From positions 32,474 to 96,473 of the IMG/VR virus record IMGVR_UViG_3300010883_007299: DNA of 64,000 bases, one strand, 5' to 3'. Source of the DNA: a virus. Position 1 is the first letter of the stretch. Each line of letters begins with the position of its first letter. The notes beneath the pieces were generated by a model. That model was given only the letters and a program-made list of their open reading frames with translations, did no database searches and was not told the origin of the DNA. A program made the position numbers and the translations under genes. Shown piece by piece: positions 2,967-55,363 of this stretch.

Positions 2967-3320
2967 CTACACTCTAGAAACGGAAGGCAATACTGTTAAT
3001 CTTCCCTCTAAAGTTCTTGTTTTATTTCCCGCGGCATCGGTTAATTGTAAGTCCCAAACAAATCTCCCATCTTTAAGGGTTCCTGTTTGAACGTCAGTCA
3101 ATTCAAGAGCTATCTTACCACTAGTCCTGTCTGCCGTAAAGGCAACAGTAAATGTTTCCGAAACACTACCAGAACCGTAGCGTTTCCTTATTTGTGCAAG
3201 AGCCGTATATCCAGTTAAGTCTAGTGTGGTAAGATTACCATCCGCATCTTCATTGGTTAGTTCTACAGTAACCGTAAAATCTGCATTAGCTTCAACTAGC
3301 AAGTTATTAATTAATGCCAT
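2967..3320 (-). CDS. Small beta-rich virion protein (baseplate or fibre accessory type)
   Basis: A 117-residue protein. The sequence alternates strands and turns: FTVTVELTNEDADGNLTTLD, TALAQIRKRYGS, then FTADRTSGKIALELTD and GRFVWDLQLTDAAG. This pattern of a bounded linear combination of inputs followed by 'GRFVWDLQL' is typical of phage proteins with an immunoglobulin-like or BppU-N-like fold. That fold assignment is by eye only. The gene has its own late promoter (TATAAATA, 3345-3352) and a GGAG ribosome binding site. It begins the small operon that ends in the repetitive fibre, so it is probably a virion component expressed late. Confidence 0.7.
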   Translation of the reverse strand: MALINNLLVEANADFTVTVELTNEDADGNLTTLDLTGYTALAQIRKRYGSGSVSETFTVAFTADRTSGKIALELTDVQTGTLKDGRFVWDLQLTDAAGNKTRTLEGRLTVLPSVSRV

Positions 3321-3329
3321 ATAAACTCC

Positions 3330-3359
3330 GATCTTTTATACTCCTATTTATAAAAGATC
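3330..3359 (-). promoter_or_regulatory. Late promoter inside a perfect hairpin
   Basis: TATAAATA reads on the minus strand at 3352-3345, about 25 bases before the ATG at 3320, matching the T4 late promoter box. It sits inside a perfect inverted repeat: 11-base arms at 3330-3340 and 3349-3359 around an 8-base loop. The right arm touches the stop codon of the upstream oxygenase gene. The hairpin could act as a terminator for that gene, or could simply frame the promoter. Confidence 0.65.
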
Positions 3360-3957
3360 AGAAGTTATAGCCCAATATTCCCGCCACAATATGCACTCTA
3401 TTTTGTTCACCACCATTAAAAAAGTTGTGATATACCGTATTATTTGTGATCCAAACAGAACCATCGGCCGGCATATGTCTACATTCATCACCAATTACCA
3501 TACGGCAACCTAGATTAGTAACAATAGGAACGTGCAAACGTGGTTCAGGATCCCTATGCCAACTCAAACAAGACCTAGGTTGTTTCAATAACAAACGAAC
3601 TCTACCTAGTTTAAAGCGACTGGTTAACGTTTCATATACTTCTTTAAAATAAGTATTTTCATACTTGGGGATAAATTCTGTGTAAAGATGTTCTTCTACA
3701 TAGACATCTCTTTCTACTTCTTTGCCATCGGAGTCTGGAATAGTCCAATACTTAGCTCGTATTTTATTTCCTTCTACGGAACTTGGATCTCCGGGAATTC
3801 TATTTAATGGTATAGCACCAAAGTTAGTTACACCTGGGGTCTCAAACTGTTGTTTAGATAACACATCCGTTAGAGCACCTTGCAACTTAGCTATATCAAA
3901 TTTGAAATCGAACAGATGATGATAATTACCATAATCTATATAAGTTTCTATATTCAT
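3358..3957 (-). CDS. 2-oxoglutarate/Fe(II)-dependent oxygenase (aspartyl/asparaginyl or prolyl hydroxylase-like)
   Basis: A 199-residue protein. The C-terminal half shows the double-stranded beta-helix iron site: H134 and D136 (WHRDPEPRLHVPI), distal H177 (VYHNFFNGG) and R187 (NRVHI), the arginine expected to hold 2-oxoglutarate. Proteins of this type hydroxylate protein side chains or small molecules and are common in T4-like marine phages. The substrate cannot be told from sequence. The gene follows hemC in the same direction but has its own late promoter (3980-3987) and an AAGGAA ribosome binding site, so it need not be part of the pigment operon. A link to tetrapyrrole chemistry is possible but unsupported. 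Confidence 0.8.
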   Translation of the reverse strand: MNIETYIDYGNYHHLFDFKFDIAKLQGALTDVLSKQQFETPGVTNFGAIPLNRIPGDPSSVEGNKIRAKYWTIPDSDGKEVERDVYVEEHLYTEFIPKYENTYFKEVYETLTSRFKLGRVRLLLKQPRSCLSWHRDPEPRLHVPIVTNLGCRMVIGDECRHMPADGSVWITNNTVYHNFFNGGEQNRVHIVAGILGYNF

Positions 3958-3962
3958 TTTAG

Positions 3963-3987
3963 TGTTCCTTTAAAGGAACTATTTATC
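3963..3987 (-). promoter_or_regulatory. Late promoter (GATAAATA) with adjacent 16-base palindrome
   Basis: GATAAATA reads on the minus strand at 3987-3980, between hemC and the oxygenase gene. Immediately downstream (3964-3979) lies the perfect 16-base palindrome GTTCCTTTAAAGGAAC, which would overlap the predicted transcription start. Its right half also supplies the AAGGAA ribosome binding site of the oxygenase gene. The palindrome could be a protein binding site or fold around the ribosome binding site. Confidence 0.6.
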
Positions 3988-3991
3988 TAAA

Positions 3992-4801
3992 TTATACATC
4001 CAATCCTTCTCTTAACTTCTGAGCCATATCCCAACCACCAAAAGGTCTTTCTAATTCAATGATACCTGAATGTTTACCATCTTCAAACATTTCAGCTTTA
4101 AATATCATTTCTGTTGCATGGCCTGCTAATGCGGTGTGGCAATCTCCACCTATTTCTACTAATAGTTCCCTTTCCATTAAAGCATTAAGCCATGTCTCAT
4201 AGTGATTAAATTTAATCATTTCATGTTTCCGATTTTGGTCATCTTCTCTAACTTGTATTGCAATAATGCCTTGACATATAGCAGGGATGGTATCTAAAGG
4301 TTTTTGTCCCACATCTATATTCAACAAATTTAATCCAGCTGAAGCCAACACGATAGCATCATATTCTCCATCTCGCCACTTATCTATTCTAGTTTCAACA
4401 TTACCTCTAATGTCTTTTACTTCAACATCTTTAAACTTATTTTTTATTTGAGCCTTACGTCGAGGCGAACTTGTACCTACAACACAACCAGGAGTAATTT
4501 CTCCTATTAAACAATCTGTAGGATCATTTCTCGGCAATACTGCCACAACAAGCAAACCTTCAGTTTTTTCGCTAGGCATATCCTTAAAACTATGAACTGC
4601 CACATCTATATTTTCATTCAACAATTCTTTTTCAACAGCATTACAAAATACAGCCTTGCCACCCATTTCCGCTATAGGAGTCTTTTGATCTTCATCACCC
4701 TCTGTAGTTATAATCTCACGGTCAAATGACATCGCTGCCGTTTTCTCAAACAAATCTACTTGTGCTAAAGACAAAGCACTGCCTCTCGATCCTACTATCA
4801 T
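3992..4801 (-). CDS. hemC: Hydroxymethylbilane synthase (porphobilinogen deaminase)
   Basis: The enzyme condenses four porphobilinogens into hydroxymethylbilane, the first linear tetrapyrrole. Family motifs are in order: GSRGSALSLAQ near the N-terminus, VAVHSFKDMPSE with the catalytic aspartate, VGTSSPRRKAQ, DIRGNVETR, ICQGIIAIQVRE, and GGDCHTALAGHA with the cysteine that binds the dipyrromethane cofactor. I chose the ATG at 4801 (269 residues), with GAGGTG 8 bases upstream, over the in-frame GTG at 4807. The protein is shorter than typical HemC (about 310 residues), mainly at the C-terminus, yet keeps the key residues. It is the last gene of the heme oxygenase-pcyX-hemE-hemC operon, 37 bases after hemE. 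No HemD (uroporphyrinogen III synthase) is visible in the window. Confidence 0.93.
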   Translation of the reverse strand: MIVGSRGSALSLAQVDLFEKTAAMSFDREIITTEGDEDQKTPIAEMGGKAVFCNAVEKELLNENIDVAVHSFKDMPSEKTEGLLVVAVLPRNDPTDCLIGEITPGCVVGTSSPRRKAQIKNKFKDVEVKDIRGNVETRIDKWRDGEYDAIVLASAGLNLLNIDVGQKPLDTIPAICQGIIAIQVREDDQNRKHEMIKFNHYETWLNALMERELLVEIGGDCHTALAGHATEMIFKAEMFEDGKHSGIIELERPFGGWDMAQKLREGLDV

Positions 4802-4838
4802 TTCCACTTCACCTCTTTGTTATCTAGTTTCGTAATTA

Positions 4839-5792
4839 TCATTGAAATCTTTTCCTAATAGTATCAATAAAAAGATGTACATTTGCTTCAGGAGTTTCTT
4901 TATCTATACCATGTCCTAAACCACATACCCAACCGAGTCTATTTCGTAGTTGCATATAATCACAAAACGTATCAATTTTTTCTCGCAGTTCTTTTTTAGG
5001 TAACAGTAAATACTTTTCTTTAAAGTTACCCTGTACAAATCCCTTATCACGACTCATCAATACTTTAGACATACTTTGAGATCCATCTATACCAACACCG
5101 CCCCAAGGATAATGAGTTGCTTTTAAAATATCTCTATTCTTACAGTAGTATCCAACATTATCTCCCACTAAAGGTTTCAATAAAGGTATGTACTTCTTTT
5201 CCCAAAACCATTGGTTCATTATATCTAAAGTACTATCAAATATCATTACCTTTTCAGCACCCGCTTCTAATTGTAAATCTATATTTGCTTTCAATATAGG
5301 CACCATAATATTTTCTAACCATTCTAAAGGTTTGTCTTGAATACCTGGAACAAACGTTCTTTTCATTAACTGTGCCGTTATAGTATAAGGCCCACCAACA
5401 AATCCTATTAAACTTACATTGTTATCTAATCTTTCTCTAGTTGCTTTTATTACATCAGCTTGAAATTTCATATGTTCAATAGCTTTTTGAACATTGCCGT
5501 GTATGCTGCCACCAGTAAATTTAGGACCTGGATCAAATTGTAATTCCATTCCCAATCCTTCCAATACAAACAATATATCAGAAAACATAATAGCAACATC
5601 TAGATCAAACTCCTTTACTGGGCCACAAGCTACCTCAGCAGCAAGCTCAGGAGTTTTACATAGTTGTTCAAATGTATATGTTTTTTTTAGTTCTTTGTAA
5701 TGAGTATGATATCTTCCTGCTTGACGCATATACCATATAGGGGGTGTGTTTTGTTCGATTCGTTCACAAGCATTATAAAAAGTTTTATTCAT
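4839..5792 (-). CDS. hemE: Uroporphyrinogen decarboxylase
   Basis: A 317-residue cytosolic enzyme that removes four carboxyl groups from uroporphyrinogen III to give coproporphyrinogen III on the path to heme. The signature PPIWYMRQAGRYHTHY is near the N-terminus, where both arginines bind substrate. It is followed by AIMFSDILFVLEGLG with the catalytic aspartate, GFVGGPYTITAQLM, and VCGLGHGIDKETPEANV with the conserved histidine near the C-terminus. It is slightly shorter than bacterial HemE (about 350). The ATG overlaps the TGA of pcyX (ATGA), so the two are probably translationally coupled. With hemC downstream, it suggests that the phage raises flux into tetrapyrrole synthesis to feed the heme oxygenase and bilin reductase encoded upstream. 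Confidence 0.93.
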   Translation of the reverse strand: MNKTFYNACERIEQNTPPIWYMRQAGRYHTHYKELKKTYTFEQLCKTPELAAEVACGPVKEFDLDVAIMFSDILFVLEGLGMELQFDPGPKFTGGSIHGNVQKAIEHMKFQADVIKATRERLDNNVSLIGFVGGPYTITAQLMKRTFVPGIQDKPLEWLENIMVPILKANIDLQLEAGAEKVMIFDSTLDIMNQWFWEKKYIPLLKPLVGDNVGYYCKNRDILKATHYPWGGVGIDGSQSMSKVLMSRDKGFVQGNFKEKYLLLPKKELREKIDTFCDYMQLRNRLGWVCGLGHGIDKETPEANVHLFIDTIRKRFQ

Positions 5793-6469
5793 AGTTCTAC
5801 TTTAGGAAAAAGCATATCAGAACAAAATAAGTCTACATCATTTTCGTCTAGACCTAAAGACTTCATTACCCTTGGTGTATGTGGGTTCTGTCTTTGGTTA
5901 TCACAATAATAATTTTGACGTTCTAATACTTCTTCCTTATCTCCGTCCCCATGTGTTTCAGTCACATGGTCAAAATAATAATTAAGGTTTTTTAATGTTA
6001 GTTGTATAATATCTAAAGACTCTCCTTCCGTCTTTACATTACTAGCAGCAATCATAGAAGGAGAAAATATATTTAAAGCCCATTCTGGCAACTCTCTCCT
6101 TTTAGTAGGAATAAAATCTTCTACTGATTCAGCAAACCACTGTATCATAAAATGATTCTTATCCACTGTTGCAGAAAAGTCGTGAAATGCTCCAGTAAAC
6201 TTTCTTTGGCCAGATATAACATCAAAGCCAAAAATAGGACTGGTGTTAGTTAGATCAGGAAAAATGCAAACGTGCATCATCCATAATTTCTTTGTATCAC
6301 GAACATCCACAACATCTATATGGCAACGTCTGGTCGATTCGGTTTGCCATACTCTATTCATCCATCCAGATTGGTTAAAATGATCCATACCAGGTTCAAA
6401 AATTTCAACACCCACATCATTAAATTTTCTTATAAATTCATTCTGTAAGTTAATAAGATTATCCCACAT
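5789..6469 (-). CDS. pcyX: Ferredoxin-dependent bilin reductase, PcyX-like
   Basis: A 226-residue member of the ferredoxin-dependent bilin reductase family, which reduces biliverdin to open-chain pigments. The core MMHVCIFPDL...PIFGFDVISG...FTGAFHDFS matches the family. H66 and D83 have the 17-residue spacing of the PcyA active-site pair His88/Asp105 (my alignment). The C-terminal block YYCDNQRQNPHTPR is also typical. Virus-encoded PcyX from uncultured oceanic phages has been shown to make phycoerythrobilin from biliverdin, and it occurs next to a phage heme oxygenase, as here. PebS, the cyanophage enzyme, is the main alternative; the histidine and the gene context favour PcyX. Electrons would come from host or phage ferredoxin. 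It starts 4 bases after the heme oxygenase stop and overlaps hemE. Confidence 0.88.
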   Translation of the reverse strand: MWDNLINLQNEFIRKFNDVGVEIFEPGMDHFNQSGWMNRVWQTESTRRCHIDVVDVRDTKKLWMMHVCIFPDLTNTSPIFGFDVISGQRKFTGAFHDFSATVDKNHFMIQWFAESVEDFIPTKRRELPEWALNIFSPSMIAASNVKTEGESLDIIQLTLKNLNYYFDHVTETHGDGDKEEVLERQNYYCDNQRQNPHTPRVMKSLGLDENDVDLFCSDMLFPKVEL

Positions 6470-6473
6470 CTAT

Positions 6474-7091
6474 CTAACTCGATGGATCTAAATCATTGCC
6501 CATCATAAGTTGTGAATGGGTGTCTTGCCAATCTTTAAGTTCATCAAACAAAGATTGTGCAAACATAAAACTCATTCTAGCTTCAGATTCCATATTATCA
6601 TTCAATCTAGATTCAAGTTCTTTTATAGATTTTTTAAGATCAACAAAATCAAATACTGTTGCTTTACCTGGCACCAAATCTTTAATCATCTGACCACCAT
6701 ATAGATCACCACCATGTCTCACATAGATATGAGCCATAAGTTTATCATCATCATTATTGATTCTCATAATTCTATCAATGTGGCTTCTAGTTGAAACGAA
6801 TGTGGGAGGTTCTGCTTCCATATCTTCTTCGTAGATTTCATCCCACAATTCCAAATAATCATTATAAAGTCTGATAGCTCTACAAGTATCTGGGTCAATA
6901 AGATTTCTCTCAACAGCAAATCTTTCCATCACATCGTATATTAAATGTAGATTAAAACAATATACGGCATAGACTTCAGCATCCATACCTTTTACTAATG
7001 TCATTGCCATGGGGTGTCGTTCTGTTTCCATGTGTATATCTCTAAGAGATGTCCGCAGGTTATCAGTACGCTCTGATTTAATATCATTCAT
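6474..7091 (-). CDS. hemO: Heme oxygenase
   Basis: It cleaves heme to biliverdin IX-alpha, CO and iron. I chose the ATG at 7091 (205 residues) because a strong GGAGG lies 9 bases upstream; a longer in-frame start at 7124 lies inside the upstream hairpin and promoter. H20, in a context H-M-E-T-E, sits 15 residues before the conserved KG and is the likely proximal heme ligand. The distal helix signature AHIYVRHGGDLYGGQ is clear. This is the first gene of the pigment operon, directly behind a late promoter box (7111-7118). Its product would be the substrate of the PcyX-like protein encoded 4 bases downstream, so the pair makes a heme to bilin route. Confidence 0.93.
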   Translation of the reverse strand: MNDIKSERTDNLRTSLRDIHMETERHPMAMTLVKGMDAEVYAVYCFNLHLIYDVMERFAVERNLIDPDTCRAIRLYNDYLELWDEIYEEDMEAEPPTFVSTRSHIDRIMRINNDDDKLMAHIYVRHGGDLYGGQMIKDLVPGKATVFDFVDLKKSIKELESRLNDNMESEARMSFMFAQSLFDELKDWQDTHSQLMMGNDLDPSS

Positions 7092-7110
7092 TATGTAATA
7101 CCTCCACCAA

Positions 7111-7118
7111 TATTTATC
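7111..7118 (-). promoter_or_regulatory. Late promoter of the tetrapyrrole operon
   Basis: GATAAATA reads on the minus strand at 7118-7111, followed by TTGGTGGAGG, which holds the Shine-Dalgarno of the heme oxygenase gene. The predicted start of transcription, near 7105, would leave a very short leader. The box is embedded in the 3' arm of the hairpin at 7114-7149. Late timing of the pigment genes is inferred from this box. Confidence 0.65.
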
Positions 7119-7149
7119 GGGCAATATCCAGAAGGATATTACCCGATAA
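7114..7149 (-). terminator. Strong hairpin before the tetrapyrrole operon
   Basis: The arms at 7114-7129 and 7134-7149 pair over 16 bases around a 4-base loop. The single non-Watson-Crick position is a G-U pair in minus-strand RNA but a C-A mismatch in plus-strand RNA, so the structure belongs to the minus transcript. It could end the RCC1 transcript arriving from the right. It lacks a clean U tract, so termination is uncertain. Its distal arm contains the late promoter. Confidence 0.55.
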
Positions 7150-7169
7150 TCAAAAGAAATAAAATGTGA

Positions 7170-9434
7170 TTAGTCTGTAGGACCAGAGTGCATACAGTAA
7201 ACATCACGGTGGTTATCATTTCTATTCCATTGGAACCAACTGTAATGATAACAACTTCTGTTAGTTCTATCATACCCAGCCCACATGACCTTACCTCTAT
7301 CATCTAGGTAAGCCATATTGGGATAGTGTCCAGAACCAAAAGCCATTAGATTAACAAGTCTAGTACCTGACGGCCAAAAAGACTTTCTCTTATTCTCAAA
7401 GTTCAAGCCTTCAAATCCTGCATCGGACGTTGCCGGCCAGTTATGACTGTTCCAACCAGTATCATTTCCACCATGTTGAAACCATCGAGAAGTATAACCA
7501 TCTTCGCCTCTACCACCAGAATATATAGAACCATTATAATCCAAATACATCGGGTCACTATACTGGTATGAAGCATCACCACGATCCGAGTTCCATCCAG
7601 AAACCCATTTAACGTGTTGTGGACCTTTAATCATTGTAAACATATTCTGAATACCACCAGAAGTATACCAGTAGTTATTTGCTGTGACAGAACTACCTCT
7701 ACCACCGTTTGCATAGCCACCATTCATTTCCCAAGTAGCACCTGTACTCTTCTGTCGCATGGCGATCCAATCATCTTCGTTATCACCTCCGATCCAGAAC
7801 TCATCAACATCTCCGTTCGGTCGGAAGTTCAATTTCTTAAATGATCCAAACTGGTGAGCTCCTTGATAACCAATCGGCGCCCAACCTGGCCAGTAACTCT
7901 GATCTTCATAACCACAAGCCCATAGCCAACCATCATTGGTTAAGATCCATGTTGAACCCCAGGTGTTGCCATCCATGACAGCAAACTGTTTGATTCCACC
8001 ATAGTCATTCCAATCAATACCAACTCGTCTTGGATTGTAGGTGTGATATGTACCATTTCTATGACCAAGTCCTAATTCACCGTTATAGTTGTGACCCCAG
8101 GACCATAAGAAACCTTCTTCATCCATTGCATAGAATCTACCTTGTGTCGCACCGCCGGACCATATATCAATAATCATCTTACCATCAAACATTGATTGCG
8201 GAATCCGGAAAGGACGATTAAAATGTGAACTATACCAACCCCAAGGCCAAACAGATGTTCCAGTTTGGTTACCAACAACTTCTCTGGTACCCATTGTAAA
8301 GTCTAGACCATCTGGACCTAAAGAAGTAGTACCTGACCAGTTGCCATCATTCTTAACGTGTGGGTTACCAAAACCAAGTTGACCTTCGTTATTGTATCCC
8401 CACATCCAAACAGAACCATCTTCACCGATAGCACCGGTTGAAGTTGAACCTGTATCTGTAGCAGAACCAGTATTAGTAACTTTAACAATCTTCGTTTGGT
8501 TAAAAGTTTTAGTAGGATTACCAAGCCAATCAGTTGTATCGTTAGCTGTGACTCTTTCTGTCCATGGTCTGGAACTTGTATGCCAAGATCCCATCTGACC
8601 ATGTCCATTATATCCTGCAGAATAAACTTCACCATTATTCATTACGAAATAAGAAGTATCATGTCCATTTACTATTTGCATAGTACGAGGACATTCTCCA
8701 TCAGGAGTAGGTAATCCTTTATCATCTGTATAGGTGTTAGGATTAAAACTGGAACAATCAGAACTCATCAACCAATCTGTGAATGTAAATCCTGTATATC
8801 TGTGTTTACCATAACCATGGCCACCGATCTGACTTTCTCCAAGTCCAGATTTGGATCCGTTATCATCTCCACCAATATGCATTACTGTTCCATCGGAACA
8901 AAGAGCCATACAATCGTGATACCATTGATGTTGGAAAGACCTAGCATCAATACCCATATTGTATCTCCAACCTAATGGGGCGAAGCCGGCAAAAGTAATA
9001 ACTTCGTGACGACCATCTCTGCCACGACGAGATTCAAATACCTTTGTCCAATACTCTGATTCTTCAACCCAAGTATTTCTAAACCTAGTCTGTTTAATAC
9101 ACTGGTAAAATTTACCATTTGCTTTACAGAATTCACCAGGCTCATATTGGCGATGGTAGTCCCAAAGCGCACAATCAGGTGCACCTCTCATGTGTAGTGC
9201 CCAGTAAGTTCTATTATCTGGACGATAACTTCTTTGGACTGCTTCTGGATGTTCAAACGCATAGTTAGTTGTATTAACTGTACCCTCATTGTAGATTACA
9301 AAGTCTACAGGACAGTCCCTAATACAACGATAACTCTTACCGTGCCACTGTACAACATCATTCTTGCTGTAAGCTTTACGAGGTCGCCATCTAGATTTCC
9401 AATTAAGTCTTAATTTACTAGTGTCTAAAGCCAT
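7170..9434 (-). CDS. RCC1-repeat propeller protein with N-terminal carbohydrate-binding-like module
   Basis: A 754-residue protein, the first of three related genes. The N-terminus has two modules resembling type 5/12 carbohydrate-binding domains (RPRKAYSKNDVVQWHGKSYR; EPGEFCKANGKFYQCI). The middle and C-terminal parts carry RCC1-type beta-propeller blades: GEDGSVWMWGYNNEGQLGFG and GFLWSWGHNYNGELGLGH are the clearest. In eukaryotes RCC1 domains bind proteins or DNA. In a phage adhesin block, a host-surface recognition or virion decoration role is more likely (inference). Tryptophan, glycine and asparagine are very frequent. It is the last gene before the hairpin that separates this block from the pigment operon. 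Confidence 0.8.
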   Translation of the reverse strand: MALDTSKLRLNWKSRWRPRKAYSKNDVVQWHGKSYRCIRDCPVDFVIYNEGTVNTTNYAFEHPEAVQRSYRPDNRTYWALHMRGAPDCALWDYHRQYEPGEFCKANGKFYQCIKQTRFRNTWVEESEYWTKVFESRRGRDGRHEVITFAGFAPLGWRYNMGIDARSFQHQWYHDCMALCSDGTVMHIGGDDNGSKSGLGESQIGGHGYGKHRYTGFTFTDWLMSSDCSSFNPNTYTDDKGLPTPDGECPRTMQIVNGHDTSYFVMNNGEVYSAGYNGHGQMGSWHTSSRPWTERVTANDTTDWLGNPTKTFNQTKIVKVTNTGSATDTGSTSTGAIGEDGSVWMWGYNNEGQLGFGNPHVKNDGNWSGTTSLGPDGLDFTMGTREVVGNQTGTSVWPWGWYSSHFNRPFRIPQSMFDGKMIIDIWSGGATQGRFYAMDEEGFLWSWGHNYNGELGLGHRNGTYHTYNPRRVGIDWNDYGGIKQFAVMDGNTWGSTWILTNDGWLWACGYEDQSYWPGWAPIGYQGAHQFGSFKKLNFRPNGDVDEFWIGGDNEDDWIAMRQKSTGATWEMNGGYANGGRGSSVTANNYWYTSGGIQNMFTMIKGPQHVKWVSGWNSDRGDASYQYSDPMYLDYNGSIYSGGRGEDGYTSRWFQHGGNDTGWNSHNWPATSDAGFEGLNFENKRKSFWPSGTRLVNLMAFGSGHYPNMAYLDDRGKVMWAGYDRTNRSCYHYSWFQWNRNDNHRDVYCMHSGPTD

Positions 9435-9461
9435 TTGCTTATTACCTTAATTTAATTTGTT

Positions 9462-9875
9462 TTAGAATCCAAGCGCTGTAATGTGAGCTGCTTTATCTGT
9501 TTCTACTTGTGCCAAGCCATCAACAATTGCCGTTGTTCCCGCAGAAACACCAGCCAGGATTTCAACTTGTGATTTGCCAGTCATAAAAGCATCTTCCATT
9601 GCTTGTAGTTCCTGCCTTAACTGACCTTGTGACATTGCCTCAACCTTGACTGCATCAAGGACTGCTTGATCGTCTGCTACTCCCTTATCATATACTTTAA
9701 CTTCGTAGTCTCCCTGAGGCGCCACTACAGTTACATTACTGTCATCGTAAGAAAAGAACTCTTTGTCATCATATGATAACAAGAAAACAGGTGTATCAGC
9801 TACATCAGAATACGCAGGTTGCACATAATCGTTATTGAGGGCAGTAGCCTTGTGACTATAAATTTTCGCTGCCAT
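9462..9875 (-). CDS. Hypothetical protein in the adhesin block
   Basis: A 137-residue protein. It has a beta-rich N-terminal half (PVFLLSYDDKEFFSYDDSN, then DYEVKVYDKGV) and a helical C-terminal half (QGQLRQELQAMEDAFMTGKS). I do not recognise the family. It has a strong late promoter 44 bases upstream and lies between two RCC1-repeat genes, so it is probably made late. It may be a chaperone or a small partner of the propeller proteins (inference from position only). Confidence 0.7.
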   Translation of the reverse strand: MAAKIYSHKATALNNDYVQPAYSDVADTPVFLLSYDDKEFFSYDDSNVTVVAPQGDYEVKVYDKGVADDQAVLDAVKVEAMSQGQLRQELQAMEDAFMTGKSQVEILAGVSAGTTAIVDGLAQVETDKAAHITALGF

Positions 9876-9918
9876 TTTATTTTATCTCCGTTATAAAAAA
9901 TATTTTGTTTTGTTGTAC

Positions 9919-9926
9919 TATTTATA
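9919..9926 (-). promoter_or_regulatory. Late promoter TATAAATA
   Basis: TATAAATA reads on the minus strand at 9926-9919, just past the stop of the 921-residue RCC1 gene and 44 bases before the ATG at 9875. A CGGAG ribosome binding site follows. It probably drives the 137-residue gene and the RCC1 gene behind it. Confidence 0.65.
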
Positions 9927-9929
9927 TAG

Positions 9930-12695
9930 TTATCGGCCTATGCCTGGGTTAATCATTTGACCATTATTGTGACTGTTGTAAGTCCAATCATTATGTCCAC
10001 CAGCATGGTTTCCATCATTACTACTATGGCCACTGAATCCGATTACTAATTGTTGTCCATCTTCTGTGATGAACCAAGGCATCATACCATACCAACTGGC
10101 AGCTTGATGACCTCCTTGTGGTATAATATGTGAAATCTTAGTGCCAGCAGGTTGATAAACATGGTAAGGTTTATAAGTTCCATCTTCACCCGTCCAGTTA
10201 TCGGCAGCATGAGGATTAGCACAACTTTTATAATTGTTTCGACCCTGTGTAAAGCATTCGCCTTCATCCGTAAGCCAATAACCCATATTGCCATCAGAAT
10301 ACGTACCGCAATAATAAACTTCTTTCAGGTTCTTAATCTTACCAATGAGTACAGGCGGATAGTTATTGCCTGTGCCACCATCACCAGAAGCATAATAAGT
10401 TCCAGAAAATCCAGCATGGTAAGTATCACCATTCTGAGTTCTCATCCACAAACCGTGGTAAGAGTTAAAGTGTTGTCCCCAAATGTCAACAATATTACCA
10501 TTAGGCGGACTTGTCATTTTTGTAGGACTGTCTTGATGGTTAGTTGTATCCGCACCACTAGCGTTACCATAACCGTTATAGCCACCATGCCACACAAAGC
10601 CGTTGCCGTCTAATATATAAACACATGTGTTACTGGAATATCCAGCAATTTGCCAAGCGGCGATACCATTATTAGCAACAGGATCCCACGGTGTAGTAGA
10701 TCCACCACCCCACTTCACAGGACGCCAATAGTCAGTTGTGTTATTCTGATTGAACCAACCAGAGTTATTACTACCCCAACAATAGAGTTGATCGTCTGCT
10801 GTTCTTGCCCAACAACCTTGATAGTTGTCTCCGCAAGTAGCAATATCTACTATTCGTTTGTTCTCAAAGTATTCTTGAGGAATCTTATATGGAGCACCCC
10901 AACTTTCTGTACGTCCATTTCCTAACTGACCGTAACCATTGTAACCCCATGTCCAAACCTGACCCTTATCATCAAGAGCCATACAAGTATGTGTATCGGT
11001 CTCTTGCTGAGTACCAGTAGAAATCTTGATGATGTGAACACCTTCCAAGTTTTGTACGGGTTGCGGAACTGGATGATTTGTGAATTGTCCACCACCAGCC
11101 TGACCGTGGCCACCATAACCTTTATGGTGTACTTCGCCATTATCAAACAGCCAGTAATGAAAACCCCAACCTCTTTCTATCTGTACACATTTAGGTGTAT
11201 GGAATTTACCAACTCGGTTTGTATGCCTTCCTCTCCATTCGCCACCTTTAATGCCAGAATCGTGAGCACCAAACCAGTTCTTATCTTCTGACTCATGCCA
11301 ATCACGGAACTGGAAGTCCATTTCCATCCAGTAACCAATTCCATCATCGGTGTGGCCATTCCAAGCTTCTGCGCCAGCAGTTGGGCCCCGTCCTAGATTC
11401 CATACCGTTCCGTTCTTATCAATCATAGCACGTGAACGATAGGTTTCAAAGTTACTATTGTTTACGTTCTTATAGGGCCAATTCATTCTGCCCATGTTGT
11501 TCGCCCAAATAGTAGCCTGTTGGTTTGTATTACCACCCGAAAGGTTTTCCCATCTCTGATCGAAACCTTGATTTTCTTCTGGAACACCTCGGTGATCCAA
11601 TGCAGTTCCTATACCAGAAGTATTTGTAGTATCTTTAGCACTCTCTACCAATGGTCCGCCATGTCCACCTGTCTTACCCATATCAACTGACATAAGTTTT
11701 GAACGTGTCCTTTCCATTGATTGACTTGTCTGCGGCGGTGTACCGCTAGTATCAGCCAAAGCCCTATAGAATCCAACTGTAGAATATGAACGTTGGTCAG
11801 GCACGTTTAGGTTTGTTTGTGGTGTACCACCTGTACCAGTGTGGTGTCTATAAGAAACTAGATCACCCCAATAATACTGTTTACTTGCTTCCCATACGCC
11901 TCGATAAGTTAGACCAGGCATTGTCATTAGATCCCAATATGAATGTCCTATCCAACCTTGTTCAATAATGAGTCCTTTATCATACCACATATCAGCAGTA
12001 GCAACACTAAAGGGATAAACTCGTTCTTCTCCAGCAGGGACATGGAGCTCGACACGACGATGCCTATTAGCCATTGTGTTAAACAATGTTGCTGTTGCCA
12101 TAGAAGCAACATAAGCTGTCTGTGTAACTTCTTTTCTATTCAAGTAATATTTTAAAGGCGAATCAACAGTACTGTTCCAAATAGTTGTTCCAGAACCATG
12201 AGTACCATCAGCCGCTAAACTGAAGTCTAAAGCATAACCTTGGTTAGTGCTGTGGTTCTGATAAAAACTAAAATGACCACACTCATAGAAGTATGGTAGA
12301 CTCTCAGAATTCATTGCATTACCACTAACACCAGCAATTTTAAATCGCTGAGTGGTTTCTAGTTCTGTTTCAACCTCGTAATTATTTTCTACGGGTTTGA
12401 GGTTGTAATGAAAATTGCCATCGTCAGTCAAAGAATGATATGCATTAATATCTATATCAGATTCTAAACGACCCTTGGCCATATTTTCCCGTGTGTTCCA
12501 TATAGTTCTATGATTTTTATATCCTAGACCTTTGTCGCCCGGAGCGAATGTTTCAAACCCATTAGCGAGATAACCCTGAGTATTAATCCACAACTTACCA
12601 CCCCACTGAACTACATCGTCCAATTCGTAGGTAATATTGGGATCCCATTCTCCTTCAAATGCGAGTTTAATTTTTCCTAAATCAATTTTAGCCAT
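9930..12695 (-). CDS. RCC1-repeat propeller protein
   Basis: A 921-residue paralogue of the proteins at 7170 and 12719. The N-terminus shows the carbohydrate-binding-like module (DPNITYELDDVVQWGGKLW), with a second copy near residue 270 (WEASKQYYWGDLVSY). RCC1 blades occupy the C-terminal two thirds, for example ALDDKGQVWTWGYNGYGQLG, then RTADDQLYCWGSNNSGWF and VYILDGNGFVWHGGYNGYG. The Shine-Dalgarno is AGGGA. A role as a virion-surface or receptor-binding protein is inferred from its neighbours, the large fibre and the other two propellers. No catalytic motif is seen. The protein keeps an open frame over 2.7 kb, so it is under selection and not a decayed copy. Confidence 0.8.
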   Translation of the reverse strand: MAKIDLGKIKLAFEGEWDPNITYELDDVVQWGGKLWINTQGYLANGFETFAPGDKGLGYKNHRTIWNTRENMAKGRLESDIDINAYHSLTDDGNFHYNLKPVENNYEVETELETTQRFKIAGVSGNAMNSESLPYFYECGHFSFYQNHSTNQGYALDFSLAADGTHGSGTTIWNSTVDSPLKYYLNRKEVTQTAYVASMATATLFNTMANRHRRVELHVPAGEERVYPFSVATADMWYDKGLIIEQGWIGHSYWDLMTMPGLTYRGVWEASKQYYWGDLVSYRHHTGTGGTPQTNLNVPDQRSYSTVGFYRALADTSGTPPQTSQSMERTRSKLMSVDMGKTGGHGGPLVESAKDTTNTSGIGTALDHRGVPEENQGFDQRWENLSGGNTNQQATIWANNMGRMNWPYKNVNNSNFETYRSRAMIDKNGTVWNLGRGPTAGAEAWNGHTDDGIGYWMEMDFQFRDWHESEDKNWFGAHDSGIKGGEWRGRHTNRVGKFHTPKCVQIERGWGFHYWLFDNGEVHHKGYGGHGQAGGGQFTNHPVPQPVQNLEGVHIIKISTGTQQETDTHTCMALDDKGQVWTWGYNGYGQLGNGRTESWGAPYKIPQEYFENKRIVDIATCGDNYQGCWARTADDQLYCWGSNNSGWFNQNNTTDYWRPVKWGGGSTTPWDPVANNGIAAWQIAGYSSNTCVYILDGNGFVWHGGYNGYGNASGADTTNHQDSPTKMTSPPNGNIVDIWGQHFNSYHGLWMRTQNGDTYHAGFSGTYYASGDGGTGNNYPPVLIGKIKNLKEVYYCGTYSDGNMGYWLTDEGECFTQGRNNYKSCANPHAADNWTGEDGTYKPYHVYQPAGTKISHIIPQGGHQAASWYGMMPWFITEDGQQLVIGFSGHSSNDGNHAGGHNDWTYNSHNNGQMINPGIGR

Positions 12696-12718
12696 TGCTT
12701 TTTTCCCTGTTTAAATTT

Positions 12719-15313
12719 TTATCCAATAGGTGGCGGAGACATAACGTTTTCTCTGCTATTTCTCATGCCGCCATCCATATAATGTGATTCGTACCCACAA
12801 TGTAGGAACCTGTTTCTATCTGTAATTATACTACAACGCCAATAGTGATTGGTTGTATCATTAGATGTATAACCAAAAGGCCTAATACTTCTAATATGTC
12901 CTTGACAATCATTCATCAGTCGAGGCATCTGGGCATAACCATTACTCCTATCTTCAATTCCGTTTGGTCTATCTTGACTTGCATTAGCATAAGTGTCAGA
13001 CCAACCCATTGAAGATGAACCACGACTATTTCTTCCACCCACAAACATATGTCCACCGTTTGTTAAGATAAAGACATTATGATAATCATAACCACTCATG
13101 CCCCATACACCCTTAATGTCTTTCATGGATACACCAAGGTTTGTGCCACCTACACTAAACTGTGGTATAACCGGAGCGTTTGTGTTTGAAGCACTTCCGT
13201 TACATAATTGATAATTTTGATTACTACCACAAGCCTGCATATTTCCATCATCGCCTTTAACGTATATGGAACCATATTGGCCACATCCAATTAACCAGAA
13301 GTTTGCAGCTGTACCTGTACCAGAACCATAACCCAAAGAAGCTTGAGTAAATATATTCTGTTGACTTGTCGTTCCTGACATAGCCCAACCTCTACCATTA
13401 TATCCAGTGGTATAAATCTTCCCAGCAGATGTAAGAGCACAAGCCCTTCCATATGAAGCTCGTTCATCACACCAGAATTTTACAATAGTTTCACCCACAC
13501 CCAATTCTAGATGTGCGCCACTACCATCCTCACCAATAGCAAGTAATGGAGCTGTAGCCTGTGATGTACTATTAATTCCTAACTGACCGTAACCATTATA
13601 ACCGCAACTGTAAATTCTACCCTGTGCAGTATAGAAATAACTGGATCCATATGAACCACCACACATCCACATATCTCTAATTTTCTGCAAGTTAAAGAAA
13701 GCGTTGTTAATCTTCTGAGGTCTATTATGGTTAGTTGTACTACCAATTCCTAACTGACCGTAACCATTGTAGCCCCACATCCAAACATCACCATTCTCGT
13801 CAATAGCACCACAGTGGTGTGTACTATCACCTTCACTAGACCAGTTAGAAAGATGAATGTCAGACATTCTTAAATCTCTCCAAACGTGTGTTGCTGTGTT
13901 TGTAGCGTCATAAATTTCTTGATATGTACCACCAACTCGTTGCGGAAAACTTCTACTTGAGTTTGCCGCATCTCCATTCTGTCCATGTCCACCATAACCC
14001 CAGTGATACACTTCGCCATTGTTCATCAAGACCAAACCAGTTTCGTAACCTACCTGATACTTAATAACTTTAGGAGCTTTTCCATCTGGAGTATTATGTA
14101 CACCTGTTCCACCATGATCTGTAGAACGGTACCAATCCAAAAATGGAAAGTTTACATTACTCATTGTCATCATAGTTTGGTTGTGAGCATTCTGACCCGT
14201 AGAAGATGAACCCTGGACCATAATGTTACCACGACCACCAATGAATGTTGGAAAGTTATGAGCCTCATATTTCTGATAGTTATTACCCAATCGTCGTGTT
14301 GGGTTATCCATACCCAAGACAGTTTCATGCATAGGTTGTTCTATCGCTTCGATATAGTCACCAGTAAATGTTGCAATCTGTCCTTGTGCCTTATCAGAAG
14401 CAATAACACTGTCATCAAAATCTTCATCAGAAGATACTAGATCCCAGTTAGCATTGTTGTTCCAAGGCAATGTGGTATTTGTTCCATCAGCTTGATGATC
14501 CTGTACACAAATGTAATTCGCCTTTGTTGTTCTTACCTGGTCATGCATCAAGAAGCCTGAGCCTCCAGTAGCATCACCACCAGAAAACTGTGAACCACCT
14601 AGTGTGTTATCATAAGGAACATCAATATGAACTACATCGTTTACATAGTACTGTGTGGTTGCTGTATTAACGTGTGCTCCCTTCCAATCAAGACTTTCTC
14701 TAACAGTTCGCCAGTACATTGTAGCATTAGTAACTGTAATTTCGTTACCCATGCCTGTACCGTGGACGCCACAATGATACCAAAGGTCTGCAGGTGATCC
14801 ACCTGCAGGTGCAGTATCATGTACACTAATTTCTATTCGTCTTGTTGTAGCAGCATTAAAGTTTGTAACATTTTCGTACTGTGCCTGTGATTTCAACCTA
14901 CCATCAAGATAGTAACGAACTCCTTTTGCATAATCTGCTACTGAAACATTACCGTTTGTTCCAAATAGCATCGGATGTCCGTCATTTGTAGAATCATCTT
15001 GATTAAAATGATGAAGTTCACCCCGTTTGAAAGTTAATGCTGGGTTAGTTATAGCAGCCGCATTTTGCATACCTTGACCAGCAAGAAAGAAAGTGTTTCC
15101 TGATCCACTTGGATATGTTGTACCAGCAGCGACAGTAACTAGATAATCAACTTCCCTGGGAATAGAGGGTAAGTTACCTGTACTTGGAGCAACACAAACA
15201 AAATCAGTGTTTCCTCTCTGCACTACATCGTCAATGACATAAGCGGTACCAGCGTTGTAATCGCCCTTATAATTGAAATGCAAATTTCCTATATTTGTTG
15301 TTGTGACTGACAT
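12719..15313 (-). CDS. RCC1-repeat propeller protein
   Basis: An 864-residue protein, the third RCC1-type paralogue. The N-terminal module NYKGDYNAGTAYVIDDVVQ resembles the carbohydrate-binding-like units in the fibre encoded immediately upstream (15338-20443). The blades are clearest at IDENGDVWMWGYNGYGQLGI and RIYSCGYNGYGQLGI. A GAGGA ribosome binding site precedes the ATG at 15313. The shared N-terminal module suggests that these proteins attach to, or share a docking site with, the long fibre (inference). Confidence 0.8.
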   Translation of the reverse strand: MSVTTTNIGNLHFNYKGDYNAGTAYVIDDVVQRGNTDFVCVAPSTGNLPSIPREVDYLVTVAAGTTYPSGSGNTFFLAGQGMQNAAAITNPALTFKRGELHHFNQDDSTNDGHPMLFGTNGNVSVADYAKGVRYYLDGRLKSQAQYENVTNFNAATTRRIEISVHDTAPAGGSPADLWYHCGVHGTGMGNEITVTNATMYWRTVRESLDWKGAHVNTATTQYYVNDVVHIDVPYDNTLGGSQFSGGDATGGSGFLMHDQVRTTKANYICVQDHQADGTNTTLPWNNNANWDLVSSDEDFDDSVIASDKAQGQIATFTGDYIEAIEQPMHETVLGMDNPTRRLGNNYQKYEAHNFPTFIGGRGNIMVQGSSSTGQNAHNQTMMTMSNVNFPFLDWYRSTDHGGTGVHNTPDGKAPKVIKYQVGYETGLVLMNNGEVYHWGYGGHGQNGDAANSSRSFPQRVGGTYQEIYDATNTATHVWRDLRMSDIHLSNWSSEGDSTHHCGAIDENGDVWMWGYNGYGQLGIGSTTNHNRPQKINNAFFNLQKIRDMWMCGGSYGSSYFYTAQGRIYSCGYNGYGQLGINSTSQATAPLLAIGEDGSGAHLELGVGETIVKFWCDERASYGRACALTSAGKIYTTGYNGRGWAMSGTTSQQNIFTQASLGYGSGTGTAANFWLIGCGQYGSIYVKGDDGNMQACGSNQNYQLCNGSASNTNAPVIPQFSVGGTNLGVSMKDIKGVWGMSGYDYHNVFILTNGGHMFVGGRNSRGSSSMGWSDTYANASQDRPNGIEDRSNGYAQMPRLMNDCQGHIRSIRPFGYTSNDTTNHYWRCSIITDRNRFLHCGYESHYMDGGMRNSRENVMSPPPIG

Positions 15314-21670: not shown

Positions 21671-21826
21671 ATGTCACAAAAATTAAAACAAAGTAGGCGT
21701 GTAGGAAAGAAACTTATAATAGTAATGCCGGCCAGTTCAGCTGAACGTCACAATGGATGGCCACCAGATAGACAATCTCGTAAGAAAGAACCAAAATTAA
21801 AAATACTATTTAAACATATCAAATAA
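21671..21826 (+). CDS. Small basic protein, unknown, plus strand
   Basis: A 51-residue protein (MSQKLKQSRRVGKKLIIVMP...KEPKLKILFKHIK), one of only two convincing genes on the plus strand. It is rich in lysine and arginine, with a short hydrophobic segment (LIIVMP) and a central ERHNGWPPDRQ. No family is recognised. I chose the ATG at 21671 because a TATAAATA box on the same strand ends 5 bases upstream; there is no Shine-Dalgarno. Its 3' end overlaps the end of the convergent radical SAM gene by 21 bases. It could be a small regulator, a nucleic-acid binding protein or a peptide substrate of the neighbouring modification enzymes. None of these is demonstrated. Confidence 0.5.
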   Translation: MSQKLKQSRRVGKKLIIVMPASSAERHNGWPPDRQSRKKEPKLKILFKHIK

Positions 21827-23815
21827 CAATGGATCTCCTCTTTTAAATGTTGTTGCTATTACATCTCTAATATATGTTTCAGTTCGTTTGTCTCCACTAT
21901 AATCTAACCATTTAAATTTAGATAACGTAGATGCATGATTGCCTGTCGTTTGCAATATGTCTTTAGAAACCTTTATTCTCTCAGGTTCATCCATTGGTTC
22001 GCTCCACCAATTAGATTTTGCTACTTTAAAATACTCTTGCCAATCATGTTCCATGGTAAATACAAACCCTTTAGTATAATCGTAATCCGGGGTTACTATT
22101 AAATCTAGATTAAATTTCATTATACTATATAAGTTTTTTACGTCATAAGTATTTCGCATATATTGTTTTAATTCTTTTCTATATTCTGCAAAGTTAAGTA
22201 ACAATAAAATTGTAATATATTCTTCAACATCGTACATAGGTTTTAATGTTGGCACTTCTTCAACTTCATATTCCCAAAACCAATCATTTTCCAAATCAAA
22301 TATAAAGTTATTGATATGTTCATTTATTTTTGAATATATAGAATATACTGTGGGATATTTTGGATTCATAAAAAAGTTATTATGAAAATCTCTATAAAAA
22401 TCTTCATATGATATATTGTGTGTGAGCTTTAAATAAATCGAAATGTATCGTGTAAATCCAAATCCATGAAAACTTCTTATCATAGCTGAAAAATTATATA
22501 TATCTATATAATCTAATCTACTATATGTAGAAGTAGATATAACAAATTCGCCTGACGAGGTTACCTCTTTTGGATTATCTTTCTTTCGGCGTCGTTGTTG
22601 TGGGTGTCGTTCTATTGTTTCTATCTGCCATTTCTTTTTATAAGCTGGTTCATTGGCTGGTGAATTTGGTAAAATTTGGAAATGAAATACTATAAAGTTT
22701 TCTAGTATACCTTCATTCATTACATCAAAAAAGTTTTGTTGCCATCTATCATAATTATCTCCTGGCAGTCCCATTATAAAACAAGATTCAATAGGTATAT
22801 TGTGATTACCAGTTTCTTTTGCTAATTTAATTAGTTCTTTATGAGGAATATTTTTCCGGTCAATAGCTTTTAATACAACATCGGATGTTGATTGTAAAGG
22901 TAATACACAAGTGGTTAACATCTCAGCGTCCCTAGCAATTTTTAATATTTCTTTTGTATAGTCCAATTTAGTTTTAGTGTGTTGTAAAAAAATTCTTGGT
23001 GGGTAACCACTCCTTTCTTTAACTTCTGCCATCTTGGATGTTATGTCTATATCTCTAGGAAAAATTCCAAAGTTAGCATTAATAACATCTATGAATCCAA
23101 TGCCAGCTTCCCCAGCAAACTCTATATCTTTATACACCACTTCTAAAGGAATCTTTCTAATTTTTTGTAGAGTAGCACTACCCCAATCACAGAATGTACA
23201 ACCAAATGGACAACCCCTATCACTTTCTAACATGAGAGCAGTATTGTCTGAACTATGACAAAACTTTTTACTATCATGTGCAAGTTCCATAAATTCTTCA
23301 GCATAATCATGGAAATATGATTTAGTAAACTCTTTTTTTAATATTGGCATACCAGTATCACCACCATTCTTTAAAACCAATCCAGGAATATCCTCAAAAT
23401 CCATAGTGCCTAATACAACTTCTTCAACTATTCTAGGAAAGGAATACTCACCTTCATGTTTAACAACAATATCTATTTGTGGATTTTTATAGAAAAACTC
23501 TATGTCTCTGTAATAAGGTTCTGGTCCTCCTACAACGACAAGACAATTCGGGTTTTCTTTTTTTATTTCGGCTGCTAGATTATAATTAGTTTCCCTGTTC
23601 CAGGTATAAACAGAACAAGCAAAAATGTTTAGATTTTTTAAATCATATCTAGATAATTTAATATGGTTCTTCCTATAGTATATCGGTTTATACCAATTAA
23701 CTTCATCACCCAAACCAGGAACATCATCAACAGACCCTTTAAGAATTCCATGTATATATGGTAGATATTCAAAAGAGGTATATGAACATGGATTACTATA
23801 TAATATATCAATCAT
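21806..23815 (-). CDS. Radical SAM protein with B12-binding-like N-terminal domain
   Basis: A 669-residue protein. Residues 1 to about 140 form a Rossmann-type domain like the B12-binding domain of class B radical SAM enzymes (CLVVVGGPEPYY, GEYSFPRIV), though no clear DxHxxG cobalamin-ligand motif is visible. The radical SAM core begins at RGCPFGCTFCDWG, with C202, C206 and C209 in CxxxCxxC spacing to bind the 4Fe-4S cluster. FIMGLPGD is the typical glycine-rich strand. The C-terminal 250 residues are unassigned. Such enzymes methylate or rearrange unreactive carbons. The substrate is unknown. The start overlaps the SET-domain gene by 8 bases, so the two are probably made together. Confidence 0.85.
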   Translation of the reverse strand: MIDILYSNPCSYTSFEYLPYIHGILKGSVDDVPGLGDEVNWYKPIYYRKNHIKLSRYDLKNLNIFACSVYTWNRETNYNLAAEIKKENPNCLVVVGGPEPYYRDIEFFYKNPQIDIVVKHEGEYSFPRIVEEVVLGTMDFEDIPGLVLKNGGDTGMPILKKEFTKSYFHDYAEEFMELAHDSKKFCHSSDNTALMLESDRGCPFGCTFCDWGSATLQKIRKIPLEVVYKDIEFAGEAGIGFIDVINANFGIFPRDIDITSKMAEVKERSGYPPRIFLQHTKTKLDYTKEILKIARDAEMLTTCVLPLQSTSDVVLKAIDRKNIPHKELIKLAKETGNHNIPIESCFIMGLPGDNYDRWQQNFFDVMNEGILENFIVFHFQILPNSPANEPAYKKKWQIETIERHPQQRRRKKDNPKEVTSSGEFVISTSTYSRLDYIDIYNFSAMIRSFHGFGFTRYISIYLKLTHNISYEDFYRDFHNNFFMNPKYPTVYSIYSKINEHINNFIFDLENDWFWEYEVEEVPTLKPMYDVEEYITILLLLNFAEYRKELKQYMRNTYDVKNLYSIMKFNLDLIVTPDYDYTKGFVFTMEHDWQEYFKVAKSNWWSEPMDEPERIKVSKDILQTTGNHASTLSKFKWLDYSGDKRTETYIRDVIATTFKRGDPLLFDMFK

Positions 23816-55268: not shown

Positions 55269-55357
55269 TGGCTCCGGAGGCTCGGATCGAACGAGCACGG
55301 TATCGAAATACCACCTAGTAAACGGCTAGGCGTGTCTACCACTTCCACCACTCCGGA
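55269..55357 (-). tRNA. Atypical class II tRNA with GUU anticodon
   Basis: The 89-base minus-strand sequence folds as a tRNA. The acceptor stem UCCGGAG pairs with CUCCGGA over seven bases, with G73 and encoded CCA. The D arm is Leu-like (GTGGAAGTGGTAGACAC). The anticodon stem CCUAG/CUAGG is perfect around a loop CCGUUUA. A long variable arm GGTAT-TTCG-ATACC and a T arm GCTCG-TTCGATC-CGAGC complete it. Read conventionally, the anticodon is GUU (asparagine), but position 33 is C, not the near-universal U, and position 37 is U, not a purine. U1-A72, G73 and GUU match bacterial tRNA-Asn, whereas the body is class II. The gene starts 6 bases after the synthetase-like gene. Leu or Ser identity remains possible. 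Confidence 0.8.
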
Positions 55358-55363
55358 ATTCTT

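What the first reader, a model, noticed from the sequence alone, without database searches (positions are those of the whole stretch)
3992..7091. Phage operon for both ends of tetrapyrrole-to-bilin synthesis: heme oxygenase, PcyX-like reductase, HemE and HemC
The sequence shows four co-directional genes. The first two are 4 bases apart, pcyX and hemE overlap by 4 bases, and hemC follows 37 bases later, all behind one late promoter. Published work names PcyX as a virus enzyme making phycoerythrobilin from biliverdin, found next to a heme oxygenase. Adding HemC and HemE in the same operon is not something I know to be described. It would let the phage increase supply of heme precursors and then divert heme to an open-chain bilin in one programme. 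If the host is not a phycobilisome-bearing cyanobacterium, the pigment's use is unknown: an antioxidant, a chromophore for a bilin-binding protein, iron release, or a signal.
Basis: partly seen in the sequence, partly recalled or inferred. Interest (0 to 1): 0.92.

Follow-up and report, generated by a model that had tools for sequence, protein, structure and literature searches.

The report
Phage heme-to-bilin operon with hemE, hemC
A marine virus of probably non-photosynthetic bacteria carries, in one late-type gene cluster, two enzymes that help build heme and two that break heme down into a pigment; the pigment half was known in related viruses, but joining it to these two heme-building genes is new and suggests the virus wants the pigment.

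Summary
Four intact co-directional genes (- strand, 7091-3992) encode heme oxygenase, a PcyX-type bilin reductase, HemE and HemC, behind a T4-type late-promoter-like box. The record is a 96-kb T4-like myovirus syntenic with Pelagibacter phage Mosig (major capsid 71%). HO-PcyX is a known pelagimyophage cassette, sometimes with alaS. In the closest relatives (L002-L005) the slot after pcyX holds alaS; here it holds hemE-hemC-AAH, with collinear flanks. The exact order occurs only in this record among 80 other pcyX loci. HemE and HemC belong to phage-only clades: 114 hemE and 187 hemC relatives were detected in viral contigs, often in hemE-hemF-hemC-type operons near nrdAB or gp46/47, away from HO-PcyX. 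Three contigs carry AlaS, HemC, HemE, HemF and a bilin reductase. HemD was found in none of 50 contigs, ferrochelatase in one. Most likely reading: phage enzymes push the host heme pathway to feed a bilin (probably PEB) branch. Heme made de novo and then degraded is iron-neutral, so the coupling favours the bilin over iron as the wanted product. Bilin identity, its use, HemE activity (Tyr164 replaced by Gln) and the junction in a second genome remain unproven. New variant of a known kind.

The parts
6474..7091 (-). heme oxygenase (205 aa)
   Evidence: PF01126 2.7e-11; PDB heme oxygenases; proximal His conserved in 78/79 viral HOs, distal G-D-x-x-GG motif nearly invariant
5789..6469 (-). PcyX-type ferredoxin-dependent bilin reductase (226 aa)
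   Evidence: PF05996 6.5e-17; full-length match to solved PcyX_EBK42635 (5owg) 1.9e-77 versus about 1e-11 for PcyA; D52/H66/D83 invariant in 82/82
4839..5792 (-). hemE, uroporphyrinogen decarboxylase (317 aa), overlaps pcyX by 4 nt
   Evidence: PF01208 2.5e-57; AF2 model pLDDT 89.6, best PDB hits all UROD (TM 0.86); catalytic R,R,D,S,H kept but the Tyr164 equivalent is Gln141
3992..4807 (-). hemC, hydroxymethylbilane synthase (271 aa from GTG; 269 aa from ATG at 4801)
   Evidence: TIGR00212 over cut-off; catalytic Asp and cofactor Cys invariant in viral HemC; AF2 pLDDT 93.7, best PDB hits are PBG deaminases
7111..7118 (-). late-promoter-like GATAAATA 20 nt upstream of HO
   Evidence: motif strand bias and placement; not tested experimentally
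7113..7153 (-). strong hairpin upstream of HO (approximate bounds), overlapping the promoter-like box; no U-tract
   Evidence: RNA fold of 7088-7172: -29.3 kcal/mol, z -5.1
3358..3957 (-). Asp/Asn beta-hydroxylase-like 2OG-Fe(II) oxygenase, next gene downstream, with its own GATAAATA (3980-3987); probably outside the operon
   Evidence: PF05118 1.3e-9; promoter-like box

Best explanation
This is a late-expressed tetrapyrrole module of a T4-like pelagimyophage. HemC and HemE push host porphobilinogen towards the heme branch: HemC makes hydroxymethylbilane, host HemD closes it, and HemE decarboxylates uroporphyrinogen III to coproporphyrinogen III; host enzymes finish heme. The phage heme oxygenase opens heme to biliverdin IXalpha and the PcyX-type reductase converts that to a phycobilin, most likely phycoerythrobilin. 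Shown here: gene identities, folds, most catalytic residues, operon layout, membership in a wider phage tetrapyrrole gene set, and the slot swap with alaS. Inferred: co-transcription, catalysis, flux to the bilin, PEB as product, SAR11-type host. Unknown: what the bilin is for. Because de novo heme followed by heme oxygenase is iron-neutral, joining synthesis to breakdown points to the bilin (or CO), not iron, as the product gained.
For: Enzyme identities and folds. PcyX-type catalytic residues in 82/82. Tight gene packing with one promoter-like box. Slot swap: in close relatives L002-L005 (L003 compared in detail: gp13 79%, tail fibre 81%, PcyX 82%) the collinear region reads fibres-HO-small gene-PcyX-AlaS-tail genes; here AlaS is replaced by HemE-HemC-AAH. 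The published alaS-hemO-pcyA/X cassette (PMC11480375) makes this the second kind of heme-precursor gene set joined to the same cassette. Contigs G008, G072 and G081 carry AlaS, HemE, HemC, HemF and an FDBR. Host assignment: synteny and identity with Mosig, isolated on Pelagibacter HTCC1062.
Against: The exact four-gene order is in one record only, and no independent copy of the pcyX-hemE junction was found (the own record is left out of that scan). Most hemE/hemC contigs examined (40 of 50) show no FDBR, though many are fragments; the 110-kb G084 has hemE-hemC without FDBR, AlaS or HemF. Tyr164 of UROD is Gln in this HemE, alone among 19 viral HemE aligned, and HemE is below the NCBIfam equivalog cut-off. 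No AlaS, HemF, HemD or ferrochelatase in the 96-kb record. No phycobilisome-type acceptor protein in 41 FDBR records, and neither HO nor FDBR in 28 genomes of the HemE-related marine bacteria.
Confidence: 0.55

Rival explanations
1. Heme supply: HemC/HemE (with AlaS/HemF in relatives) keep up heme for respiration during infection; HO-PcyX trims or recycles heme, and the shared operon is regulatory convenience.
For: hemE/hemC/hemF operons are widespread in phages without an FDBR on the contig and often sit near nrdAB or gp46/47, i.e. with nucleotide and DNA metabolism. PMC11480375 proposes heme upkeep as a role of phage AlaS.
Against: In this genome hemE-hemC lie directly behind HO-PcyX in a late-type unit, where breakdown would undo the supply.
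Confidence: 0.25
2. Neutral cargo: the slot between pcyX and the tail genes collects metabolic genes by recombination; adjacency has no pathway meaning.
For: The slot differs between close relatives; AAH, an unrelated oxygenase, is there too; the order is unique.
Against: The enzymes found directly after pcyX in this lineage are both heme-pathway (AlaS; HemE-HemC). HemE and HemC have the same sister L091 in both trees, so they probably moved as a unit. Other pcyX loci have non-heme downstream genes, many unassigned.
Confidence: 0.12
3. Iron release: heme oxygenase frees Fe(II) for the many phage 2OG-Fe(II) oxygenases and ribonucleotide reductase; HemC/HemE refill the heme pool.
For: Mosig has several 2OG-Fe(II) oxygenase genes next to HO-PcyX; AAH follows here. 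Iron supply has been discussed for the cassette (PMC11480375).
Against: New heme costs one iron for each one released, so synthesis genes add no iron; PcyX is unnecessary for iron release.
Confidence: 0.05
4. Assembly chimera joining a hemE-hemC contig to a HO-pcyX contig.
For: Single record; no second copy of the junction found.
Against: 4-nt stop/start overlap at the junction, intact frames, flanks collinear with L003 on both sides; the nearest hemE/hemC relative found is only 57-61% identical, so no contig seen here is the source.
Confidence: 0.03

Closest known systems
hemO-pcyX cassette of marine phages; Pelagibacter phage Mosig EXVC030M (MT647606)
   Same: HO directly followed by a PcyX-type reductase, near neck/tail-fibre genes of a T4-like pelagimyophage
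   Different: no HemE in Mosig and none of the tested families AlaS, HemF, HemD or ferrochelatase; here hemE-hemC follow pcyX
alaS-hemO-pcyA/X cassettes (PMC11480375; alaS directly after pcyX in L002-L005)
   Same: heme-precursor gene joined to the same bilin cassette; in L003 the same genome slot
   Different: the position after pcyX holds HemE+HemC (middle of the pathway) instead of AlaS (first step)
Phage hemE-hemF-hemC / hemF-hemC-hemE operons (seen in this study; L091, L092, L113, L140 and others)
   Same: same HemE and HemC phage clades; L091 is sister of the window in both trees
   Different: these include hemF, often lie near nrdAB or gp46/47, and are not joined to HO-PcyX
Deep-ecotype pelagimyophages with coproporphyrinogen oxidase and porphobilinogen deaminase (PMC7029224)
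   Same: heme-synthesis genes in pelagimyophages
   Different: no heme oxygenase, bilin or uroporphyrinogen decarboxylase mentioned there

Membership tests
PcyX (viral four-electron bilin reductase) | sequence closer to characterised PcyX than to PcyA | tested here: met
   5owg 1.9e-77 over residues 1-224, PcyA entries about 1e-11
PcyX (viral four-electron bilin reductase) | Asp in place of PcyA Glu76 (probably the PcyX-specific Asp that PMC11480375 calls Asp55; that identification is my inference from the alignment) | tested here: met
   D52 aligned at that site; invariant in 82/82 viral sequences
PcyX (viral four-electron bilin reductase) | converts biliverdin IXalpha to phycoerythrobilin | not testable with these tools
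   needs enzyme assay
Heme oxygenase (PF01126) | family match, proximal His, distal G-D-x-x-GG helix motif | tested here: met
   2.7e-11, over cut-off; alignment to solved HOs; residues conserved
Uroporphyrinogen decarboxylase HemE | UROD fold and Pfam family | tested here: met
   2.5e-57; Foldseek top 24 hits all UROD
Uroporphyrinogen decarboxylase HemE | NCBIfam equivalog cut-off and full active site (Arg37, Arg41, Asp86, Tyr164, Ser219, His339, human numbering) | tested here: inconclusive
   183.8 bits versus cut-off 302.95; all residues but Tyr164 kept, Gln141 there
Hydroxymethylbilane synthase HemC | equivalog cut-off, catalytic Asp, cofactor-binding Cys | tested here: met
   238.8 versus 164; Asp and Cys invariant; fold
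Published alaS-hemO-pcyA/X three-gene cassette | alaS next to hemO and pcyA/X, or nearby | tested here: not met
   no AlaS in the 96-kb record; hemE-hemC in its place
Pelagimyophage (SAR11-infecting T4-like) | T4-like structural genes syntenic with Mosig | tested here: met
   MCP 71%, TerL 61%, portal 56%, same order
Pelagimyophage (SAR11-infecting T4-like) | infects SAR11 | not testable with these tools
   host inferred from Mosig only

The most novel reading that the evidence does not exclude
Marine T4-like phages of non-photosynthetic bacteria encode most of a virus-specified route from glycine and succinyl-CoA to a phycobilin (AlaS, HemC, HemE, HemF, heme oxygenase, PcyX), leaving HemD, ferrochelatase and perhaps HemB and protoporphyrinogen oxidase (the last two not tested) to the host; this window shows two of the synthesis genes built into the bilin operon, which would mean that the bilin itself is the selected product.
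Probability: 0.4. Interest if true: 0.78.

Novelty: new variant of a known kind. Interest (0 to 1): 0.62.

Why it matters
Why phages of bacteria without phycobilisomes carry hemO-pcyX is called still enigmatic in the 2024 paper (PMC11480375). Two different heme-precursor gene sets placed in the same slot of that cassette argue that the phage wants flux through heme into the bilin, not iron. The hemE gene, and the hemE-hemF-hemC operons shared by dozens of marine phage contigs, were not found in the literature searched; they turn a puzzle about one reductase into a testable pathway with a defined set of host-supplied steps.

Tried and rejected
Single-sequence HemE and HemC scans of viral contigs found nothing because they used idiosyncratic peptides; alignment queries fixed that. 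HemE/HemC hits in the phage record collection looked bacterial (records named as Salmonella genomes, a hemC-hemD neighbourhood, unverified wastewater and fecal contigs), so they were not counted as phage. The exact-junction scan found no second copy. A ferrochelatase in Mosig (its annotation) was rejected: no PF00762 or NCBIfam match. No phage HemD in 50 records. No phycobilisome-type protein in 41 FDBR records.

Full report
Observation. The four ORFs are real, intact and co-directional on the - strand: HO 7091-6474, PcyX 6469-5789, HemE 5792-4839, HemC 4807-3992. Spacing is 4 nt, a 4-nt overlap, and 31 nt (37 if HemC starts at the ATG at 4801). Family matches are far above chance. HemC passes its NCBIfam equivalog cut-off; HemE and the bilin reductase do not, and no NCBIfam model matches HO. 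[T/G]ATAAATA, the T4-type late promoter core, is strongly biased to the coding strand (16 versus 2) and 10 of 16 copies lie within 60 nt upstream of starts; one (GATAAATA) lies 20 nt upstream of HO, one upstream of the next gene (AAH), none upstream of pcyX, hemE or hemC. The HO copy overlaps a strong hairpin.

Enzymes. PcyX matches the solved viral PcyX (5owg) nearly end to end at 1.9e-77 and PcyA structures only at about 1e-11; at the PcyA Glu76 site it has Asp, as 5owg does, and D52/H66/D83 are invariant in 82 viral sequences. That fits PEB rather than PCB formation, by analogy with PMC11480375, which links a PcyX-specific Asp to the activity. HO keeps the proximal His and the distal glycine motif. 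HemC keeps the catalytic Asp and cofactor Cys and models as a PBG deaminase. HemE models as UROD (TM 0.86) and keeps Arg, Arg, Asp, Ser and His of the active site, but has Gln where UROD has Tyr164; the other 18 viral HemE aligned have Tyr. Human UROD Y164F was crystallised with coproporphyrinogen III (1r3w, listed), so this change need not abolish binding, but it lowers confidence in HemE activity.

Phage and host. The window is part of a 96,473-base IMG/VR virus record. Its structural genes match Pelagibacter phage Mosig in the same order (MCP 71%, TerL 61%, portal 56%, sheath 51%). Mosig was isolated on Candidatus Pelagibacter ubique HTCC1062. A SAR11-type host is therefore inferred, not shown.

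The cassette and the slot swap. Of 80 other viral pcyX loci, nearly all have HO just upstream. None has hemE or hemC within the at most 8 kb held on each side. The nearest PcyX relatives (L002-L005, 80-82%) have alaS directly after pcyX. L003 and the window are collinear gene by gene: RCC1-type fibre, HO, (a small gene in L003), PcyX, then AlaS in L003 or HemE-HemC-AAH in the window, then the same two small tail genes (78-82%), the long tail fibre (81%) and gp13 (79%). So a heme-precursor gene set of another kind occupies the position of alaS, the gene of the published cassette (PMC11480375).

A wider phage heme set. Alignment-based scans found 114 hemE and 187 hemC relatives in IMG/VR (best 80 each kept). 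Gene orders include hemE-hemF-hemC, hemF-hemC-hemE, hemC-hemE and hemE-hemC, some with alaS nearby. Phage nature is supported by neighbours: 124 of 162 hem loci carry another homologue of a Mosig marker gene, such as nrdA/nrdB, gp46/47 or portal. One AlaS and one HemF example exceed their NCBIfam cut-offs. In whole-contig searches of 50 records AlaS was found in 14, HemF in 16, ferrochelatase in 1, HemD in 0. Ten of 50 hemE/hemC contigs also carry an FDBR, but apart from hemE/hemC. Three contigs (G008, G072, G081) have AlaS, HemC, HemE, HemF and an FDBR. HemB and protoporphyrinogen oxidase were not searched.

Origin. Viral HemE form one clade (SH-aLRT 93), next to marine alphaproteobacterial single-cell genomes; viral HemC form one clade (89); the window's sister is L091 in both trees (95 and 98). 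hemE and hemC thus probably came together from a phage hemE-hemF-hemC operon, with hemF lost. The 28 related marine genomes tested have no FDBR, no HO and no recognisable HemD; their HemC sits in an open frame of about 500 aa, with an unassigned C-terminal part in those inspected.

Mechanism. Established pathway knowledge: HemC makes hydroxymethylbilane, HemD closes it to uroporphyrinogen III, and HemE commits it to coproporphyrinogen and hence heme rather than siroheme or B12. HO and PcyX then make biliverdin and a phycobilin, needing reduced ferredoxin (Mosig encodes a 2Fe-2S ferredoxin; no such gene was looked for in this record). Heme made de novo and then opened gives back the iron it consumed, so joining synthesis to breakdown favours the bilin (or CO) as the product gained. 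Without HemD, HemC and HemE would give type-I coproporphyrinogen, a dead end for heme; the phage must rely on host HemD. The use of the bilin is unknown: no phycobilisome-type acceptor was found in 41 FDBR records.

Novelty. Known: hemO-pcyX; alaS-hemO-pcyA/X (PMC11480375); PBG deaminase and coproporphyrinogen oxidase in one pelagimyophage group (PMC7029224). Not found in the literature searched (PMC open-licence papers only): phage HemE, phage hemE-hemF-hemC operons, and their fusion to HO-PcyX. Verdict: new variant of a known kind; the four-gene order itself rests on one record.

Noticed in passing
L091-L175 (e.g. L092:7995-10500, L140:7995-10497, L113:6383-8975): hemE-hemF-hemC and hemF-hemC-hemE operons in dozens of marine phage contigs, often beside nrdAB or gp46/47, sometimes with alaS; HemD never found.
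   Followed up: partly
L346-L372 (e.g. L348:787-2301): HemC of marine alphaproteobacterial, SAR86 and HIMB59-type genomes sits in a frame of about 500 aa with an unassigned C-terminal part of roughly 200 aa, and PF02602 HemD matches none of 28 such genomes: possibly a divergent HemC-HemD fusion; alaS lies beside it in several.
   Followed up: partly
L090:4354-5124 (Mosig_00059): 'Putative ferrochelatase' of Mosig has no ferrochelatase match in Pfam or NCBIfam; by eye it resembles a 2OG-Fe(II) oxygenase. Ferrochelatases reported in other pelagiphages next to 2OG-Fe oxygenases (PMC9599517) may deserve a recheck.
   Followed up: partly
window 55269-56215 (-): tRNA-Asn (gtt) directly beside a 283-aa class II tRNA-synthetase-like protein (AsnRS/AsnA-like, weak match).
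   Followed up: no
window 21806-23815 (-): B12-binding radical SAM protein, nearest KedN5-type C-methyltransferase (2e-45, below cut-off), near glycosyltransferase-like genes.
   Followed up: no
window 7170-15313 (-): Three long tail-region proteins; the one scanned (7170-9434) has RCC1-type beta-propeller repeats and the other two look alike by sequence.
   Followed up: no
L002:7581-7871: Small membrane-like protein with a weak NnrU match between HO and PcyX in the alaS-bearing relatives; absent from the window.
   Followed up: no
window 3318-3360 and 7113-7153 (-): Late-promoter-like boxes lie inside or at the edge of strong hairpins (z -4.5 and -5.1).
   Followed up: partly
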